From the NCBI GenBank assembly GCA_027366525.1, contig DAHXKG010000002.1, positions 199,605 to 263,604 on the forward strand: a DNA stretch of 64,000 bases, given 5' to 3'. The notes beneath the pieces are model-generated. The model ran no database searches. It had not been told where the DNA came from and saw nothing but the letters and a program-made list of their open reading frames with translations. Position numbers and translations under genes: made by a program. Shown piece after piece: positions 3,028 through 9,891 of this stretch. The stretch's first letter is position 1. Each line of letters starts with the position of its first letter. This DNA comes from a candidate division FCPU426 bacterium. GTDB lineage: Bacteria; Oederibacteriota; Muellerivitia; Muellerivitales; DAHXKG01.

Positions 3028-3708
3028 ATGTCAAACTGGAAAATAAGCGTTCAAAAAGATAAAAATAATTTTGAGAGCTTTAAAAATTGGGCAAAGTTGC
3101 ACCAAGAATTTATTGCGATCTTAATAATCGTAATTCTTATCATCGGAATTGGATTACCCTATTATTTAAACTCTGTAGCAACAAACAATAAAAAATCAAT
3201 GGCCATGCTAAATATGGGTATCTATTACTTAAATGCTCCCGTAGGCCCTCAAAGTGCATTCAAAACCGAGGTTGAAAAATATCAAGAGTGTTCAACTTTT
3301 TTTAATAAAGTCAAAAATCTTTATCCTGGAACCCAAGCCTATAATATAGCTTATTATTATCTTGGTAAATGTGATTTGTTTTTACAAAATTATATGTTAG
3401 CAAGTAAATATTTCAAATTAGCTTATAAAAAACTAAAAAATACTCCGTTAGGTCAAGAAGCTTTTATTGGAGTAGGGATGTGTTATATTTCACAATCTCA
3501 ATGGAATCCAGCAATTTTGATATTTGAAAAATATTTAAAAATTTATCCTAACGGATTTTTACGCGAAGAAGCTCGGTTTAATTTGGCTAAAATTGATAAG
3601 TTGGTACATAATTTAGCCATGGCAAAAATAGAGCTTAAAAAAATTATCCATTCACATCCAAACTCAGATTGGGCCAAACAAGCAAGTTTTGAACTTCAAA
3701 CGTTGTGA
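3028..3708 (+). CDS. Membrane-anchored tetratricopeptide-repeat protein
   Basis: A 226-residue protein with a short cytoplasmic N-terminus, one transmembrane segment at about residues 31-51 (ILIIVILIIGIGLPYY) and TPR-like helices from about residue 55 to the end. These include AYYYLGKCDLFLQNYMLASKYF and WNPAILIFEKYLKIYPNG. The layout matches YfgM/YbgF-like scaffold proteins that project TPRs into the periplasm, but I see nothing that fixes a partner. GGTAGG lies 6-11 bases before the ATG. It is the last plus-strand protein gene before the strand switch, and its TGA abuts the stop codon of the convergent aminotransferase gene with no spacer. Confidence 0.78.
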   Translation: MSNWKISVQKDKNNFESFKNWAKLHQEFIAILIIVILIIGIGLPYYLNSVATNNKKSMAMLNMGIYYLNAPVGPQSAFKTEVEKYQECSTFFNKVKNLYPGTQAYNIAYYYLGKCDLFLQNYMLASKYFKLAYKKLKNTPLGQEAFIGVGMCYISQSQWNPAILIFEKYLKIYPNGFLREEARFNLAKIDKLVHNLAMAKIELKKIIHSHPNSDWAKQASFELQTL

Positions 3709-4902
3709 TCAAAGTAATTCATATAATAAGCTAGTAAGTAGGCTTATTGCTTTATCAAATTGATCCTCCTGAATTAAAAGGCTGAATACTAAAAAATTTC
3801 CAGAAAAAAAATTATAAAAATCCCCCGGATGTATTAATATCTTGTGTTTTTGGTATAACTCCCAACATATTTTTACATCAAAATAAGGCTGCATGCCGTG
3901 AATTTCAATTATTCCATACCAGCCGCCTTGCGGATCCAAAATTGAAATTTTTTTTTCCTGTGCTAAGTTCAACAATATTTTTTTTAACCGCTGATAATTA
4001 TTGTTAGTCCTTATTGAAACTTCATCTTGAAATTTATTAGCAACTGTTAACAGCTTTGGTAAATGAATTTGAATTGGAATATTTACAGAAAGGAACGTGT
4101 CAGCAATAAACTCCAATCGAATTTTTGCTTGATCAACTAATTCTCTTGGACCTTCAAGGATAATCCAAGAAATTTTCAACTGAGGAAGTCCACATAGTTT
4201 TGATAATCCACCTAAACGAAAAATTAAAGTGTTTTTCGATGAAAAATAGTTCGGTTTCACTCCACGTGCATATTCATAAAAAACTTCATCAATAATTATT
4301 GGGATATTTTTGTTAGCTGTCGTAAAAATTTTTTCAAGTTCTACAAACTCATCGTAGTTTAAGTAATTTCCAGTTGGATTATTTGGTGAAACATAAATCA
4401 GACCTTTAATGTCATTAGAAAGCAATAGCTGTGTGAAATAATCTAAATCAATTTTCCAACCTTGATTTGGATCTAATTTATAAAAAACAGGAATGTTTGA
4501 TTCTAGTTGTAATAAATATTCTAATAATGGATAAGAAGGAATTGGAACCATAAATTTGTCCATCGGATTGGCTAACAGCTTAAAAATAAATGAATATGCT
4601 TCACTCGTACCTGAAGTAAAAAAAATATTTTCAGCTTGGGTTATTCTTCCTTGATGGGTTAAATAATTTGCAAGACTTTCACGGGCAATTTTGTTTCCTT
4701 GGGGGTTAGGATGATACGGAAAAATATTTGAAAAATTAAAATCTTTTAAATTGAAATAGGAATAGCTTTTAAAATCACATTTTGTGGGATTGGATTCAGT
4801 TAAGTCAATCTGGGGGAGTCCGCTTTTATCGACAAGATCTCCAAGAAAGTTTGGTGTAAAATCATCAGGTAATCGATTGGAAAACATTCTCTTTAATTTC
4901 AA
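3709..4902 (-). CDS. Pyridoxal-phosphate aminotransferase, class I/II
   Basis: A fold-type I PLP enzyme of 397 residues. Visible family landmarks are TSGTSEAYSFIF (phosphate loop), SPNNPTGNY, IIIDEVFYEYARG (aspartate for the pyridine nitrogen) and LSKLCGLPQLKISW, which holds the Schiff-base lysine. Such enzymes move amino groups between amino acids and 2-oxoacids. The substrate cannot be read from the sequence. An aspartate, alanine or aromatic aminotransferase is possible. The annotated start is a TTG. An ATG five codons later (4887) is an alternative, and neither has an ideal ribosome-binding site. The gene is convergent with the TPR gene, with stops back to back at 3706-3711, and lies downstream of the Xer recombinase gene. 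Confidence 0.88.
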   Translation of the reverse strand: MKLKRMFSNRLPDDFTPNFLGDLVDKSGLPQIDLTESNPTKCDFKSYSYFNLKDFNFSNIFPYHPNPQGNKIARESLANYLTHQGRITQAENIFFTSGTSEAYSFIFKLLANPMDKFMVPIPSYPLLEYLLQLESNIPVFYKLDPNQGWKIDLDYFTQLLLSNDIKGLIYVSPNNPTGNYLNYDEFVELEKIFTTANKNIPIIIDEVFYEYARGVKPNYFSSKNTLIFRLGGLSKLCGLPQLKISWIILEGPRELVDQAKIRLEFIADTFLSVNIPIQIHLPKLLTVANKFQDEVSIRTNNNYQRLKKILLNLAQEKKISILDPQGGWYGIIEIHGMQPYFDVKICWELYQKHKILIHPGDFYNFFSGNFLVFSLLIQEDQFDKAISLLTSLLYELL

Positions 4903-4981: not shown

Positions 4982-6007
4982 TTAATGTTTTAGATTGTGA
5001 TTTCTATATAGTTCTAGAACTTCAGTAATTGTTGATTTTTTATCTAAATTTAAATTAACAACTTTAGCTTGAAATCCGCTCCCAAAAGCCTTTTCATACG
5101 CATTGAGTTTGCTTTGTTGGGCAATTTTCACATAATTCTCACTTACAGAAATACTTGAATGCCCCATTAAATCCCGGATTTCATAAGCGCTTGCTCCAGA
5201 TTCTGCTAAAATACTTCCAAACGTGTGTCTTAAAACATGTACTGTAAGTTCTTTAGAATTCTCTAATTTGGCCCAATTGGCAGCCTGCTTTACGTTTAAT
5301 TCTAAAAAATGTGGATGAATTGGCTTTTCCCGACTCCTAGGACTTGGAAAAAGGAATATGCTTTGAGAAGCTCTTGAATTTTCTAATGCACGATATAATA
5401 AGCTTTTTAATCCACTTGTAATCGGTAAAATCCTTTCTTTATTACCTTTACCTGTAACTAAAATATAGTTTTGGCTTAAATTAATATTTTGAATACGTAA
5501 TTTCGAAATTTCAGACACACGTAAGCCACACTCATACCCCAATAAAACAGTTAACGTAATATTTAATTCGTCTATAGTTTCGGTGCGTAACGAACTTAAA
5601 AGGGAGGTACGATCCGTTAAAGAAAGTGGGCGAGGATTTTTTTGTGGTGAATTCATTGCTAGATAATGAAAAACAGCCGTTGGATCCTGAGAAATTTGTT
5701 GAGTGGCAGCCAAATATCGATAAAACGAGCGTAGAGATGCTAAAATTCTTTTAATTGAACGCGTTGAATACTTCATGCGTAATTTTCCAGAAGGAGTACT
5801 ACCAGATTGATTTAAAAAACTAATAAATTCAGTTAATTGATGAGAATTAACCTCCAATGGAGTTTTAATGTTTTCACGATCAAGGAAAAACTTAAAAACA
5901 CGAAGATCTTGTTGATAATTCGATATCGTATGAATTGAGTTAAAAAGTTTTAAAAAATCACCATACGGTTTGATCAAACTTAAATTATCCGGCCTTGTAA
6001 ATGACAT
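4982..6007 (-). CDS. Xer-family tyrosine recombinase
   Basis: A site-specific recombinase likely to resolve chromosome dimers. The N-terminal SAM-like DNA-binding domain spans about residues 15-105 and the catalytic domain about 125-300. All catalytic positions are present: R163 in CGLRVSE, K187 or K190 in GKGNKER, H257 and R260 in HVLRHTFGS, H283 in MGHSSIS, and the nucleophile Y292. At 341 residues it is longer than typical XerC/XerD (about 300) because 49 residues follow the tyrosine. AGGT lies 6 bases before the ATG. A perfect palindrome with dif geometry lies 28 bp upstream of the start. XerC, XerD, XerA, XerH or XerS identity cannot be decided here, and only one Xer gene is in the window. 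A mobile-element integrase is less likely, as no element boundaries or excision genes are nearby. Confidence 0.9.
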   Translation of the reverse strand: MSFTRPDNLSLIKPYGDFLKLFNSIHTISNYQQDLRVFKFFLDRENIKTPLEVNSHQLTEFISFLNQSGSTPSGKLRMKYSTRSIKRILASLRSFYRYLAATQQISQDPTAVFHYLAMNSPQKNPRPLSLTDRTSLLSSLRTETIDELNITLTVLLGYECGLRVSEISKLRIQNINLSQNYILVTGKGNKERILPITSGLKSLLYRALENSRASQSIFLFPSPRSREKPIHPHFLELNVKQAANWAKLENSKELTVHVLRHTFGSILAESGASAYEIRDLMGHSSISVSENYVKIAQQSKLNAYEKAFGSGFQAKVVNLNLDKKSTITEVLELYRNHNLKH

Positions 6008-6035
6008 GGTTGACCTAATTTTATAGTTTCATGCT

Positions 6036-6069
6036 TTAAACTTCTATAACTGTAATTATAGAAGTTTAA
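6036..6069. other. dif-like Xer recombination site (perfect 14-bp inverted repeat, 6-bp spacer)
   Basis: Left arm TTAAACTTCTATAA (6036-6049), spacer CTGTAA (6050-6055), right arm TTATAGAAGTTTAA (6056-6069). The arms are perfect reverse complements. The inner 11+6+11 bp match the known organisation of dif sites, including the TTAT beside the spacer on the right arm. The site lies between the alpha/beta hydrolase stop and the Xer start and has no U-tract on either side, so a terminator is unlikely. The position next to a Xer gene and near the switch in gene orientation supports dif. The identity is inferred. Confidence 0.65.
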
Positions 6070-6122
6070 TTTGGGTTTGTAAAGGTTTTAAAAATAGATT
6101 TAAAATAATTGAAATTTCAAAT

Positions 6123-6935
6123 CTAATAGGCTTTTTTTGAAAGTTTTTTTTCAGCTAAATAGGTAGAACCTTTGTAGAAATTCAAAAATTCTCTCAAAAG
6201 TAATTGAAAAATTTTAGGCTGTTCCAGTGGAATCAAATGACCAGCATGCGGAATAAACTCTAACCTAGATAATTTAATCCTTTTATGCATTTTTTGCATT
6301 ATTTCAGGTTGCAGGACCTTATCTTCAGAACCTACTAATAATAGTGTTGGAATGCTAATTTTATTTAATAATGCTGTCCTTGAAGGTCGATTTGCCATAG
6401 CTTTTTCACTGTAAATTATAGATTTAGTACTAGTTTTTTGAATCTTAGCTTTAATTTTTTGAACCATAAATTTTCTCTTATGTTGTGTTGTAACACCAAG
6501 CAATAGTCTAGACAACGAATCAGCCAAAAAAGAAATGCCTTCTTTGGAAATTTTTTTAATAATTCCCTGACGATTTTCCTTATTAATTTTAGAATCACCC
6601 TGTTCATGCGTTGATATCAACACCATTCCTGAAATTTGTCGTGAAATTAATTTAAAGATTTCGAAACTTAAATAGCCACCCATTGAAATTCCAACTAAAA
6701 TATACTTACCATTATTAATTTCCTTAATAATTGGAACAATTTTTTCGGCCACACGAGGTAATGATTGAGCCCACGAATATAAAGGACTTTTCCCAAAACC
6801 TGGATAATCAATGAAAATATACTGGAAATTCTTAACCGGCTTCAATCCATCCCATATAAAGCTAGATAGAGGGAATGCATGCAAAAAAATGACTGGCTGC
6901 CCTTTGCCGATTATTTTTATGTGTAATGTTTTCAT
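6123..6935 (-). CDS. Alpha/beta hydrolase
   Basis: A 270-residue alpha/beta-hydrolase-fold protein. FLHAFPLSSFIWDGL (about residues 18-32) forms the oxyanion-loop region. The nucleophile elbow is GISMGG with its serine near residue 102. The acid is in LLVGSEDKVLQP, and the catalytic histidine is in IPHAGHLIPLEQP. The layout resembles the esterase/BioH/MhpC-type branch. The substrate is unknown. It lies upstream of the Xer gene on the same strand, with the dif-like palindrome between them. It has no signal peptide, so it should be cytosolic. Confidence 0.87.
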   Translation of the reverse strand: MKTLHIKIIGKGQPVIFLHAFPLSSFIWDGLKPVKNFQYIFIDYPGFGKSPLYSWAQSLPRVAEKIVPIIKEINNGKYILVGISMGGYLSFEIFKLISRQISGMVLISTHEQGDSKINKENRQGIIKKISKEGISFLADSLSRLLLGVTTQHKRKFMVQKIKAKIQKTSTKSIIYSEKAMANRPSRTALLNKISIPTLLLVGSEDKVLQPEIMQKMHKRIKLSRLEFIPHAGHLIPLEQPKIFQLLLREFLNFYKGSTYLAEKKLSKKAY

Positions 6936-6984
6936 AATTTATTATAAAAATATTAAAGTATTTCATTATATTTATCAATATGAT

Positions 6985-8229
6985 TCAAAACTCGACCTCT
7001 AAATTAACCAAATATGATAAATTTTTATAAGAATTACTTGATAAATATATATCTAAGTTCTTAATTTCATTTGAATAACCTACCGAATTTACAAGCAAGG
7101 TATCAATGGGTGAAAATGCGTTTCCTTCATTTAATCGTGAGAATGTATAATCCCCTTGTGAATTAGTTAAGCAAACTATTAAATCAGCAAAATTCAACTT
7201 GCTTTTTATCTCGAAAAAAAAACTAGTTTGTGGCATTTGAGCTTTTGAAAGCAGTAATCCATTGCCACCAGTAAAACTATTGTCCAAAGTTAACCCTAAG
7301 GGGCTTTGAATTTCAAAAATAATTTTTTTAAATAAAAAATCATTTACTACTGGAATCATTTTTTTGAAATTTAAGCCATATGTTATTACACTTGAATTAA
7401 CCCAATGTGATGTATCTTGCGATCCATATTCGACATCGAATGAGAATTGCTTTGTTAAATTAAAATTAATTGCAGATGAAATATTCCAATGGCCACTCAT
7501 TATTGAATATGCATAAAATTGATTTATGGATTTTCCAAAATTAACTCTTAGAATTGATGATTTATTAATTAAATTTACTCTGATTTGACCTAAAAAGTAA
7601 TCTTGTACTCCATTTTCATTGACATAAATATTTTTGAAAACACTTGGAAAATAAAAAAAAGAAATGGAACTTGATAAAGTTTCCATTCTTTTGTAATTCG
7701 TGATCCCCATTTTAAAATTTACTGGAATGGTTATCTGAAGTCCGTCTAGATGTCGAATCCCCATGGTACTATAATCTCCAAAAAAACACGATGGGCTTAA
7801 AATGTCCCCAATATCCAGTCTTCCAATTGATAAACTTATCCACGCGTTGTTATATGATAATTGTTCACTAATAACATTAAAGAAATCAATTGAAGAAGAA
7901 CTTGAAAAATTTTTTTCAAGTTCAAATTGACCAGAAATATTTAGACTGGAGCTTGAAATCCATTTTTCAAATTTAACAATTAAAGTAGAATCAATTTGAG
8001 AACCCAGTTCCGAATTTATATCATTAAAACTCAATGCATAATTAACTTTTAATGGATTTTGAAATCCTGGAAAATTATTGTCCGACAAATTAATTTCAGG
8101 TAAAATACCACAATTATCTTTTGAATTTTTTATTTTTTGTGCCCATACAACATGATTCAATACAAAAAAAAAGAAATAATAAAATAAGATATTTTTTTTA
8201 ATTTTCTTTAATAAGAGGCATTTAAGCAT
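6985..8229 (-). CDS. Predicted outer-membrane beta-barrel protein, unknown function
   Basis: I do not recognise a named family. The 414-residue product begins with a basic stretch, a hydrophobic phenylalanine-rich segment (about residues 14-29) and VVWAQ, consistent with a signal peptide. The rest is rich in Ser, Asn and Phe and has alternating beta-strand patterns such as NLTKQFSFDVEYGSQ. It ends in NLEVEF, with a C-terminal phenylalanine as in outer-membrane barrels. Its first 22 bases overlap the end of the upstream lipoprotein gene, so the two are probably translationally coupled and may act together at the outer membrane. No homologue-based function can be offered. Confidence 0.65.
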   Translation of the reverse strand: MLKCLLLKKIKKNILFYYFFFFVLNHVVWAQKIKNSKDNCGILPEINLSDNNFPGFQNPLKVNYALSFNDINSELGSQIDSTLIVKFEKWISSSSLNISGQFELEKNFSSSSSIDFFNVISEQLSYNNAWISLSIGRLDIGDILSPSCFFGDYSTMGIRHLDGLQITIPVNFKMGITNYKRMETLSSSISFFYFPSVFKNIYVNENGVQDYFLGQIRVNLINKSSILRVNFGKSINQFYAYSIMSGHWNISSAINFNLTKQFSFDVEYGSQDTSHWVNSSVITYGLNFKKMIPVVNDFLFKKIIFEIQSPLGLTLDNSFTGGNGLLLSKAQMPQTSFFFEIKSKLNFADLIVCLTNSQGDYTFSRLNEGNAFSPIDTLLVNSVGYSNEIKNLDIYLSSNSYKNLSYLVNLEVEF

Positions 8230-9314: not shown

Positions 9315-9891
9315 ACTTTCTCAATAATTAAATTTTTTACTATTTTTACTCCATACAAGCGATTAACATTACAAAAATATTTATTTTTATTTGTAAAAGA
9401 AAAAATTTGTGCAGGAAAAATATATTTTTAAAAAAACAAAAGTTTTTTTTGTTGTGATAACTTGCTAAGTTTAATAAAAATATTTATATCAGACACTTTT
9501 AATGCCAATTTAAATTGATCAAATAAGTTTAAAATAAATGATTCATTACTGAATGAAACAATACTATTTTCATTTTGGAGATTTAGAAAATTTTTGAATT
9601 TATCAGAAGATGTCAATCGCAAAACCAGAACATCATTTCATTGAACGACCATAAAAATTTAATAATCATTTATTATTTTTTAAGCTTATACCTTTGTCAC
9701 AATTGATTCTTAAGATGGCCTTTGAATTAAAGATATATCGCCCTATTTGCACTCAATTTAAAAACAATAAATATTCGTTATATAACGCAGTCTGACAGAT
9801 TTTTAAATCATCGATAAAATTCTAAATAATTATTGATCTATTTTTTTATACCGATAATAATATCAGCTATGCATTTAATATTGAGAAATAT
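9315..9891. other. 577-bp intergenic region, no convincing gene
   Basis: This stretch separates the divergent lipoprotein gene (minus) and glutaredoxin gene (plus). One minus-strand frame (9428-9622, 64 codons, TTG start) is open and reads protein-like. It has no ribosome-binding sequence and no ATG, and a stop codon lies shortly upstream. I treat it as unproven, possibly a gene remnant. AAAAAAC and GTTTTTT arms near 9430-9448 could form a weak hairpin. By hand count, 9661-9890 has 22 G and 31 C on the plus strand. I see no RNA gene. Confidence 0.5.

What the first reader, a model, noticed from the sequence alone, without database searches (positions are those of the whole stretch)
6036..6069. 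A dif-like site with perfectly symmetric arms beside a lone Xer recombinase, close to the gene-orientation switch
Seen: arms of 14 bp that are exact reverse complements around a 6-bp spacer, 28 bp upstream of the start of a Xer-family recombinase gene with a full catalytic set. There is no U-tract on either strand. Genes left of 3708 are on plus and those right of it almost all on minus, as expected around a terminus. Known: dif is 11+6+11 bp, with TTAT common beside the spacer; streptococcal XerS acts alone at a dif site near its gene. Inference: this is the terminus, and identical arms would suit a single recombinase acting as a homotetramer rather than a XerC/XerD pair.
Basis: partly seen in the sequence, partly recalled or inferred. 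Interest (0 to 1): 0.75.

Follow-up and report, generated by a model that had tools for sequence, protein, structure and literature searches.

The report
Symmetric dif beside a lone Xer
At the replication terminus of an unnamed bacterium a single Xer recombinase gene sits next to a perfectly mirror-symmetric recombination site that also appears to be part of its promoter; nine related genomes keep the arrangement while the site's two arms change together, pointing to a one-protein system for separating joined chromosomes whose enzyme may control its own expression.

Summary
The site lies on the cumulative GC-skew plateau and within 2.3 kb of the gene-orientation flip. The flip recurs at the site in four relatives; their GC skew is mixed. 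All nine genomes held of the order carry the orthologous Xer plus a TATAA-N6-TTATA site just upstream. Outer arm sequence changes between genera but mostly in step on both sides, as expected if one protein binds both arms. Outgroups in the phylum have two Xers, and several have a canonical asymmetric dif away from xer. Two additions. (1) On the xer strand the site supplies the -10 box of a sigma-70-type promoter whose -35 lies outside the site; -35 matches across nine genomes exceed all 5000 shuffles, so Xer binding should repress its own gene. (2) One relative carries symmetric sites with dif-type arms but other spacers on plasmid-like contigs. Closest known: Legionellales XerL, then XerS and XerH. 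A new variant of a known kind; recombination and autoregulation are untested.

The parts
6036..6069 (.). dif-like recombination site: 14-bp perfectly symmetric arms around a 6-bp asymmetric spacer; canonical 11+6+11 core is 6039-6066
6050..6055 (.). spacer CTGTAA (TTACAG on the xer strand): the only asymmetric part, so the likely source of site polarity
6055..6060 (-). predicted -10 box TATAAT of the xer promoter, made of the inner arm plus one spacer base
6078..6083 (-). predicted -35 box TTTACA, 17 bp from the -10 and outside the recombination site
4982..6007 (-). lone Xer-family tyrosine recombinase, 341 aa, full catalytic set
3709..4902 (-). aminotransferase-like gene (my reading of the sequence, no family scan): first minus-strand gene after the orientation flip
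3028..3708 (+). last plus-strand gene before the flip (orientation marker of the terminus)

Best explanation
This is the chromosome dimer-resolution locus of the bacterium: a dif-type site at the replication terminus with its dedicated recombinase gene beside it. One Xer protein would bind both identical arms, so two sites would be joined by four copies of the same protein, with polarity given only by the 6-bp spacer and activation probably by FtsK (a gamma domain is encoded). The site also contains the -10 box of the xer promoter, so Xer bound to dif should block RNA polymerase and keep Xer levels low. Shown here: anatomy, uniqueness, terminus position, conservation with arms changing in step, promoter-like sequence conservation, copies on plasmid-like contigs. 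Inferred: binding, recombination, FtsK dependence, promoter use and repression.
For: Site on the cumulative GC-skew plateau. Gene orientation flips at the site in G000, G001, G003, G004, G006. One XerC/D-type gene in a 97.5% complete genome; the only other tyrosine-recombinase hit is a broken integrase on C27. FtsK gamma domain present. Nine of nine order genomes have the Xer ortholog with TATAA-N6-TTATA upstream. The two outer arms of a site match each other better than arms from other genomes (45 vs 29.1 expected, p = 0.0006); covariation score 0.353 vs 0.165 shuffled, 0/500, and 0.05-0.11 when slid. The phylum outgroups put in the tree contribute two Xers each, one of them three; several have a canonical asymmetric dif with no xer within the stretch held. 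Promoter: 11/12 match with 17-bp spacing; -35 match mean 4.56 of 6 over nine genomes vs 2.60 in shuffles, maximum 3.67 of 5000. G003 contigs with perfect symmetric sites that have dif-type arms and other spacers, one of them encoding ParA, ParB and a coupling protein.
Against: No experiment. GC skew is mixed in relatives: G001 peaks 21 kb from the site, G003 is uninformative, G004 has the wrong sign, although gene orientation flips at the site there. G002 has only 7/11 symmetric arm positions. The nine sites are related sequences, so shuffle statistics overstate independence. Any dif with TATAA inner arms resembles a -10 box, so only the -35 match is independent evidence for the promoter.
Confidence: 0.88

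Rival explanations
1. The palindrome is only an operator (or promoter element) of the xer gene, bound by Xer or another regulator, and the true dif lies elsewhere.
For: It overlaps a good sigma-70-type promoter and sits directly upstream of the gene.
Against: Terminus position in five genomes; 11+6+11 layout with TATAA/TTATA inner arms as in dif; no other copy in this genome and no canonical dif hit in any of the nine order genomes; copies with different spacers on plasmid-like contigs away from xer.
Confidence: 0.05
2. It is an RNA hairpin: a transcription terminator of the upstream hydrolase gene or an attenuator in the xer leader. Paired arm changes would then be RNA covariation.
For: Strong predicted hairpin on both strands, z -5.2 and -7.4; covarying arms.
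Against: No T-run and no terminator-like hit; the inner five base pairs are invariant in letter, as protein-bound dif arms are; the start predicted from the promoter would lie inside the site, so the hairpin would not be in that transcript; same arms found on plasmid-like contigs in another context.
Confidence: 0.03
3. A mobile-element attachment site with its integrase (an integrated element next to its att site).
For: A tyrosine recombinase next to a palindromic site is common in mobile elements.
Against: Orthologs with the site directly upstream in all nine genomes of the order, forming one clade; single copy, no second att; neighbours (aminotransferase- and hydrolase-like genes) look chromosomal.
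Confidence: 0.02
4. A second recombinase exists in the roughly 2.5% of the genome that is missing, and the system is XerC/XerD after all.
For: The assembly has 33 contigs; completeness 97.5%.
Against: G006 (94% complete) and G007 (84%) also give one hit each at E 0.001; the extra tyrosine recombinases of other members that were scored match the Xer profile more weakly than outgroup XerC/D do, 28-82 vs 92-143 bits, apart from G002's phage-linked copy at 171 bits.
Confidence: 0.04

Closest known systems
XerL/dif of Legionellales (PMC9765430)
   Same: Single recombinase; dif arms are uninterrupted inverted repeats of 10 and 12 bp; terminus position
   Different: In L. pneumophila dif and xerL are more than 400 kb apart; here they are 28 bp apart and the site overlaps the predicted xer promoter. 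The XerL sequence was not compared here.
XerS/difSL of streptococci and lactococci (PMC5357621)
   Same: Single recombinase, gene immediately adjacent to its site, terminus position
   Different: difSL is 31 bp with an 11-bp central region and unequal, imperfect arms; this protein scores 81.5 bits against the XerS model, cut-off 267
XerH/difH of Campylobacter and Helicobacter (PMC2731167, PMC3325230)
   Same: Single recombinase linked to its site, 6-bp centre
   Different: difH has short repeats with a conserved slight asymmetry; the profile of this family matches solved XerH weakly (46 bits, XerD 120)
XerA/dif of archaea (PMC5357621)
   Same: Single recombinase, 11+6+11 site
   Different: Archaeal, described as FtsK-independent; here FtsK gamma is encoded; XerA model 128.8 bits, cut-off 220
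XerCD/dif
   Same: 11+6+11 layout, similar A/T-rich inner arms, terminus, FtsK gamma
   Different: Needs two recombinases and has asymmetric arms; outgroups of this phylum have that form

Membership tests
dif-type chromosome dimer-resolution site | about 28 bp, two 11-bp arms, 6-bp centre, partial dyad | tested here: met
dif-type chromosome dimer-resolution site | unique, non-coding, near the replication terminus | tested here: met
dif-type chromosome dimer-resolution site | recombination by Xer in cells | not testable with these tools
   needs experiment
XerCD/dif | two paralogous recombinases | tested here: not met
   one XerC/D-type gene
XerCD/dif | protein passes the XerC or XerD equivalog cut-off | tested here: not met
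   157 bits (cut-off 335.15) and 150.1 bits (cut-off 329.6)
XerS/difSL | XerS family protein | tested here: not met
   81.5 bits, cut-off 267
XerS/difSL | 31-bp site with 11-bp centre | tested here: not met
   6-bp centre; difSL description from PMC5357621
XerH/difH | XerH family protein | tested here: inconclusive
   family profile matches XerH at 46 bits and XerD at 120; no dedicated XerH model appeared
XerA (archaeal) | passes NF040815 | tested here: not met
   128.8 bits, cut-off 220
XerL/dif | uninterrupted symmetric arms with a single recombinase | tested here: met
   (this genome and three relatives over 11 bp)
XerL/dif | XerL clade by sequence | not tested
   no XerL sequence was fetched
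FtsK-dependent Xer systems | FtsK with gamma domain | tested here: met
   96.5 bits, cut-off 30.6

The most novel reading that the evidence does not exclude
An order-wide, single-recombinase dimer-resolution system in which dif is built into the promoter of its own recombinase gene, so that the recombination site doubles as the operator setting recombinase dose; its two arms evolve in step and are borrowed by plasmids that rely on the host enzyme.
Probability: 0.5. Interest if true: 0.65.

Novelty: new variant of a known kind. Interest (0 to 1): 0.52.

Why it matters
It gives a natural comparison of two-protein and one-protein Xer systems within one phylum: outgroups with two Xers and an asymmetric dif, and an order with one Xer and a symmetric dif. 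With identical arms and identical subunits, the usual answer to which strand is cut first (XerD, activated by FtsK) cannot apply, so what breaks the symmetry becomes directly testable, with the spacer as the only asymmetric element. If dif is also the xer operator, recombinase dose is tied to the occupancy of its own target. Symmetric sites on plasmid-like contigs of a relative suggest that plasmids use the same enzyme.

Tried and rejected
Searching viral contigs with the Xer alignment found no relative. Strand-biased 7- and 8-mers (a search for KOPS-like words) were listed, but AT-rich words dominate and no clear motif emerged. I tried to test whether difSL also overlaps the xerS promoter; the class reached gave three pattern matches in 395 genomes that I did not take for difSL, so that comparison was not made. 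XerL was not compared by sequence; its Coxiella homolog lies on a virulence plasmid, which I did not fetch. An automatic alignment of five longer upstream regions was gapped and not used. A first attempt to scan G002's second Xer failed on coordinates. That phage-linked Xer-like gene was considered as a XerC/D partner and thought unlikely because it lies beside lysozyme- and exonuclease-like ORFs (identified by eye).

Full report
Observation. The inverted repeat at 6036-6069 is exactly as described: TTAAACTTCTATAA - CTGTAA - TTATAGAAGTTTAA. It lies between an alpha/beta-hydrolase-like gene (6123-6935, minus; named by eye) and a 341-residue Xer-family tyrosine recombinase (4982-6007, minus), 28 bp before its ATG. 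The protein matches Phage_integrase and the N-terminal SAM-like domain, and the RKHRHY catalytic set is invariant among orthologs. Chance is a poor explanation: simulated contigs of the same dinucleotide make-up contain 0.017 such repeats each. No terminator-like element is present. In the 2.02-Mb genome no other place matches the arms within three mismatches.

Terminus. The window is part of a 273,637-bp contig. Cumulative GC skew rises to a plateau at about 187-213 kb and then falls; the site is at 205.6 kb. Gene orientation flips from plus to minus at the site, and the same flip occurs at the homologous site in G001, G003, G004 and G006. GC skew in relatives is less clear: G001 peaks 21 kb away, G003 is weakly negative on both sides, and G004 has the opposite sign. 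I weigh the orientation flip more, but the discrepancy is unexplained.

One recombinase. The only XerC/D-type gene found is this one. The other tyrosine recombinase hit is a broken integrase on contig 27. In a tree of 40 Xers the eight full-length order orthologs form one clade (support 100/99), apart from the Xer lines of the outgroups. The outgroup genomes put in the tree contribute two sequences each, G041 three. Long branches make the position of the order clade uncertain, and whether it descends from XerC or XerD was not resolved (157 vs 150 bits). FtsK with a gamma domain is encoded.

Conservation. All nine genomes of the order held carry TATAA-N6-TTATA directly upstream of the orthologous xer. 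With A/T at both ends of the 28-mer the same pattern occurs elsewhere only once in the window's genome (a site with poorly matching outer arms) and five times in G003 (see below). The outer arm differs between genera (AACTTC, ATTTCA, AATTAG, ACTTGG, ATTCGG types), yet the two arms of a site match each other better than arms of other sites (45 vs 29.1, permutation p = 0.0006). Pair counting gives covariation 0.353 against 0.165 for shuffles and at most 0.113 for slid versions. Over 11 bp the arms are perfectly symmetric in four genomes, 10/11 in three, 9/11 in G007 and 7/11 in G002. Several outgroups in the phylum have a canonical asymmetric dif such as ACTTCGCATAA TGTATC TTATGTTAACT, 7-8/11 symmetric, with no xer within the stretch held. 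The contrast is between two Xers with an asymmetric unlinked dif and one Xer with a symmetric linked dif.

Promoter overlap. On the xer strand TTTACA-17-TATAAT is the best promoter match in 5500-7000 (11/12). The -10 is the inner arm plus one spacer base; the -35 is outside the site. Because TATAA is fixed by the site, only the -35 is independent evidence: across nine genomes the best -35 at spacing 16-18 matches TTGACA at 4.56 of 6 positions on average, against 2.60 for shuffled flanks, with none of 5000 shuffles reaching it. In G002 and G008 an ATG directly abuts the right arm. If the promoter is used, transcription would start within the site, and bound Xer would block it. I found no description of this in the papers read, but only a few were read.

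Plasmid-like copies. G003 carries further perfect 11+6+11 sites: contig 47, ATCTTCTATAA AAATTG TTATAGAAGAT, and contig 73, AACTTCTATAA AACTGT TTATAGAAGTT. Contig 73 has a third, less symmetric site of the CGG/TGG arm type, TTTCGGTATAA CCGTTT TTATACCAAAT. Contig 47 encodes ParA, ParB and a conjugative coupling protein. Contigs 73 and 47 end in nearly the same sequence. These look like plasmid resolution sites for the host Xer, comparable to cer or pdif. No xer gene was seen beside them, which argues against a mere xer operator or attenuator.

Known systems. Single-recombinase systems are known: XerS, XerH, XerA and XerL. [quoted passage not shown] The present system combines both features: XerL-like symmetric arms and XerS/XerH-like linkage. 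It fails the curated cut-offs of XerC, XerD, XerS and XerA. I file it as a new variant of a known kind.

Verdict. A dif-type dimer-resolution locus with a single Xer: 0.88. The promoter-operator reading: about 0.5. Both need the experiments listed.

Noticed in passing
G003 contigs C47 (34633-34660; L210 about 9634-9661) and C73 (L209 855-882 and 1596-1623): Symmetric dif-like sites with dif-type arms but other spacers on plasmid-like contigs; C47 has ParA, ParB and a coupling protein.
   Followed up: partly
L209 (G003 C73), e.g. near 270-290, 1648-1667 and 1980-2001: Repeated short palindrome TTCTACCCGGTAGAA and variants, perhaps a regulator or partition-protein site.
   Followed up: no
L085 4419-5354 (G002 C20): Xer-like recombinase, 34% identical to the window's Xer, beside phage-like ORFs (lysozyme- and exonuclease-like by eye), in the one genome whose dif arms have become clearly asymmetric (7/11).
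   Followed up: partly
L213 5346-5371 (IMG/VR record IMGVR_UViG_3300050821_001649): A virus-classed contig holds one perfect site with ACTTCTATAA arms and spacer CTCTGA just before a possible gene start; no Phage_integrase match in the record. May be a dif mimic or chance.
   Followed up: partly
L018 8744-9518 (G000 C27): Broken phage-type integrase split over two frames.
   Followed up: no
G003 C13 54988-55015: A partly symmetric TATAA-N6-TTATA sequence between mnmG-like and mnmE-like genes (by eye), a neighbourhood often near the origin; probably chance.
   Followed up: partly
G004 C101 around 40 kb: GC skew changes from negative to positive at the dif, opposite to a terminus, although gene orientation flips as at a terminus.
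   Followed up: partly
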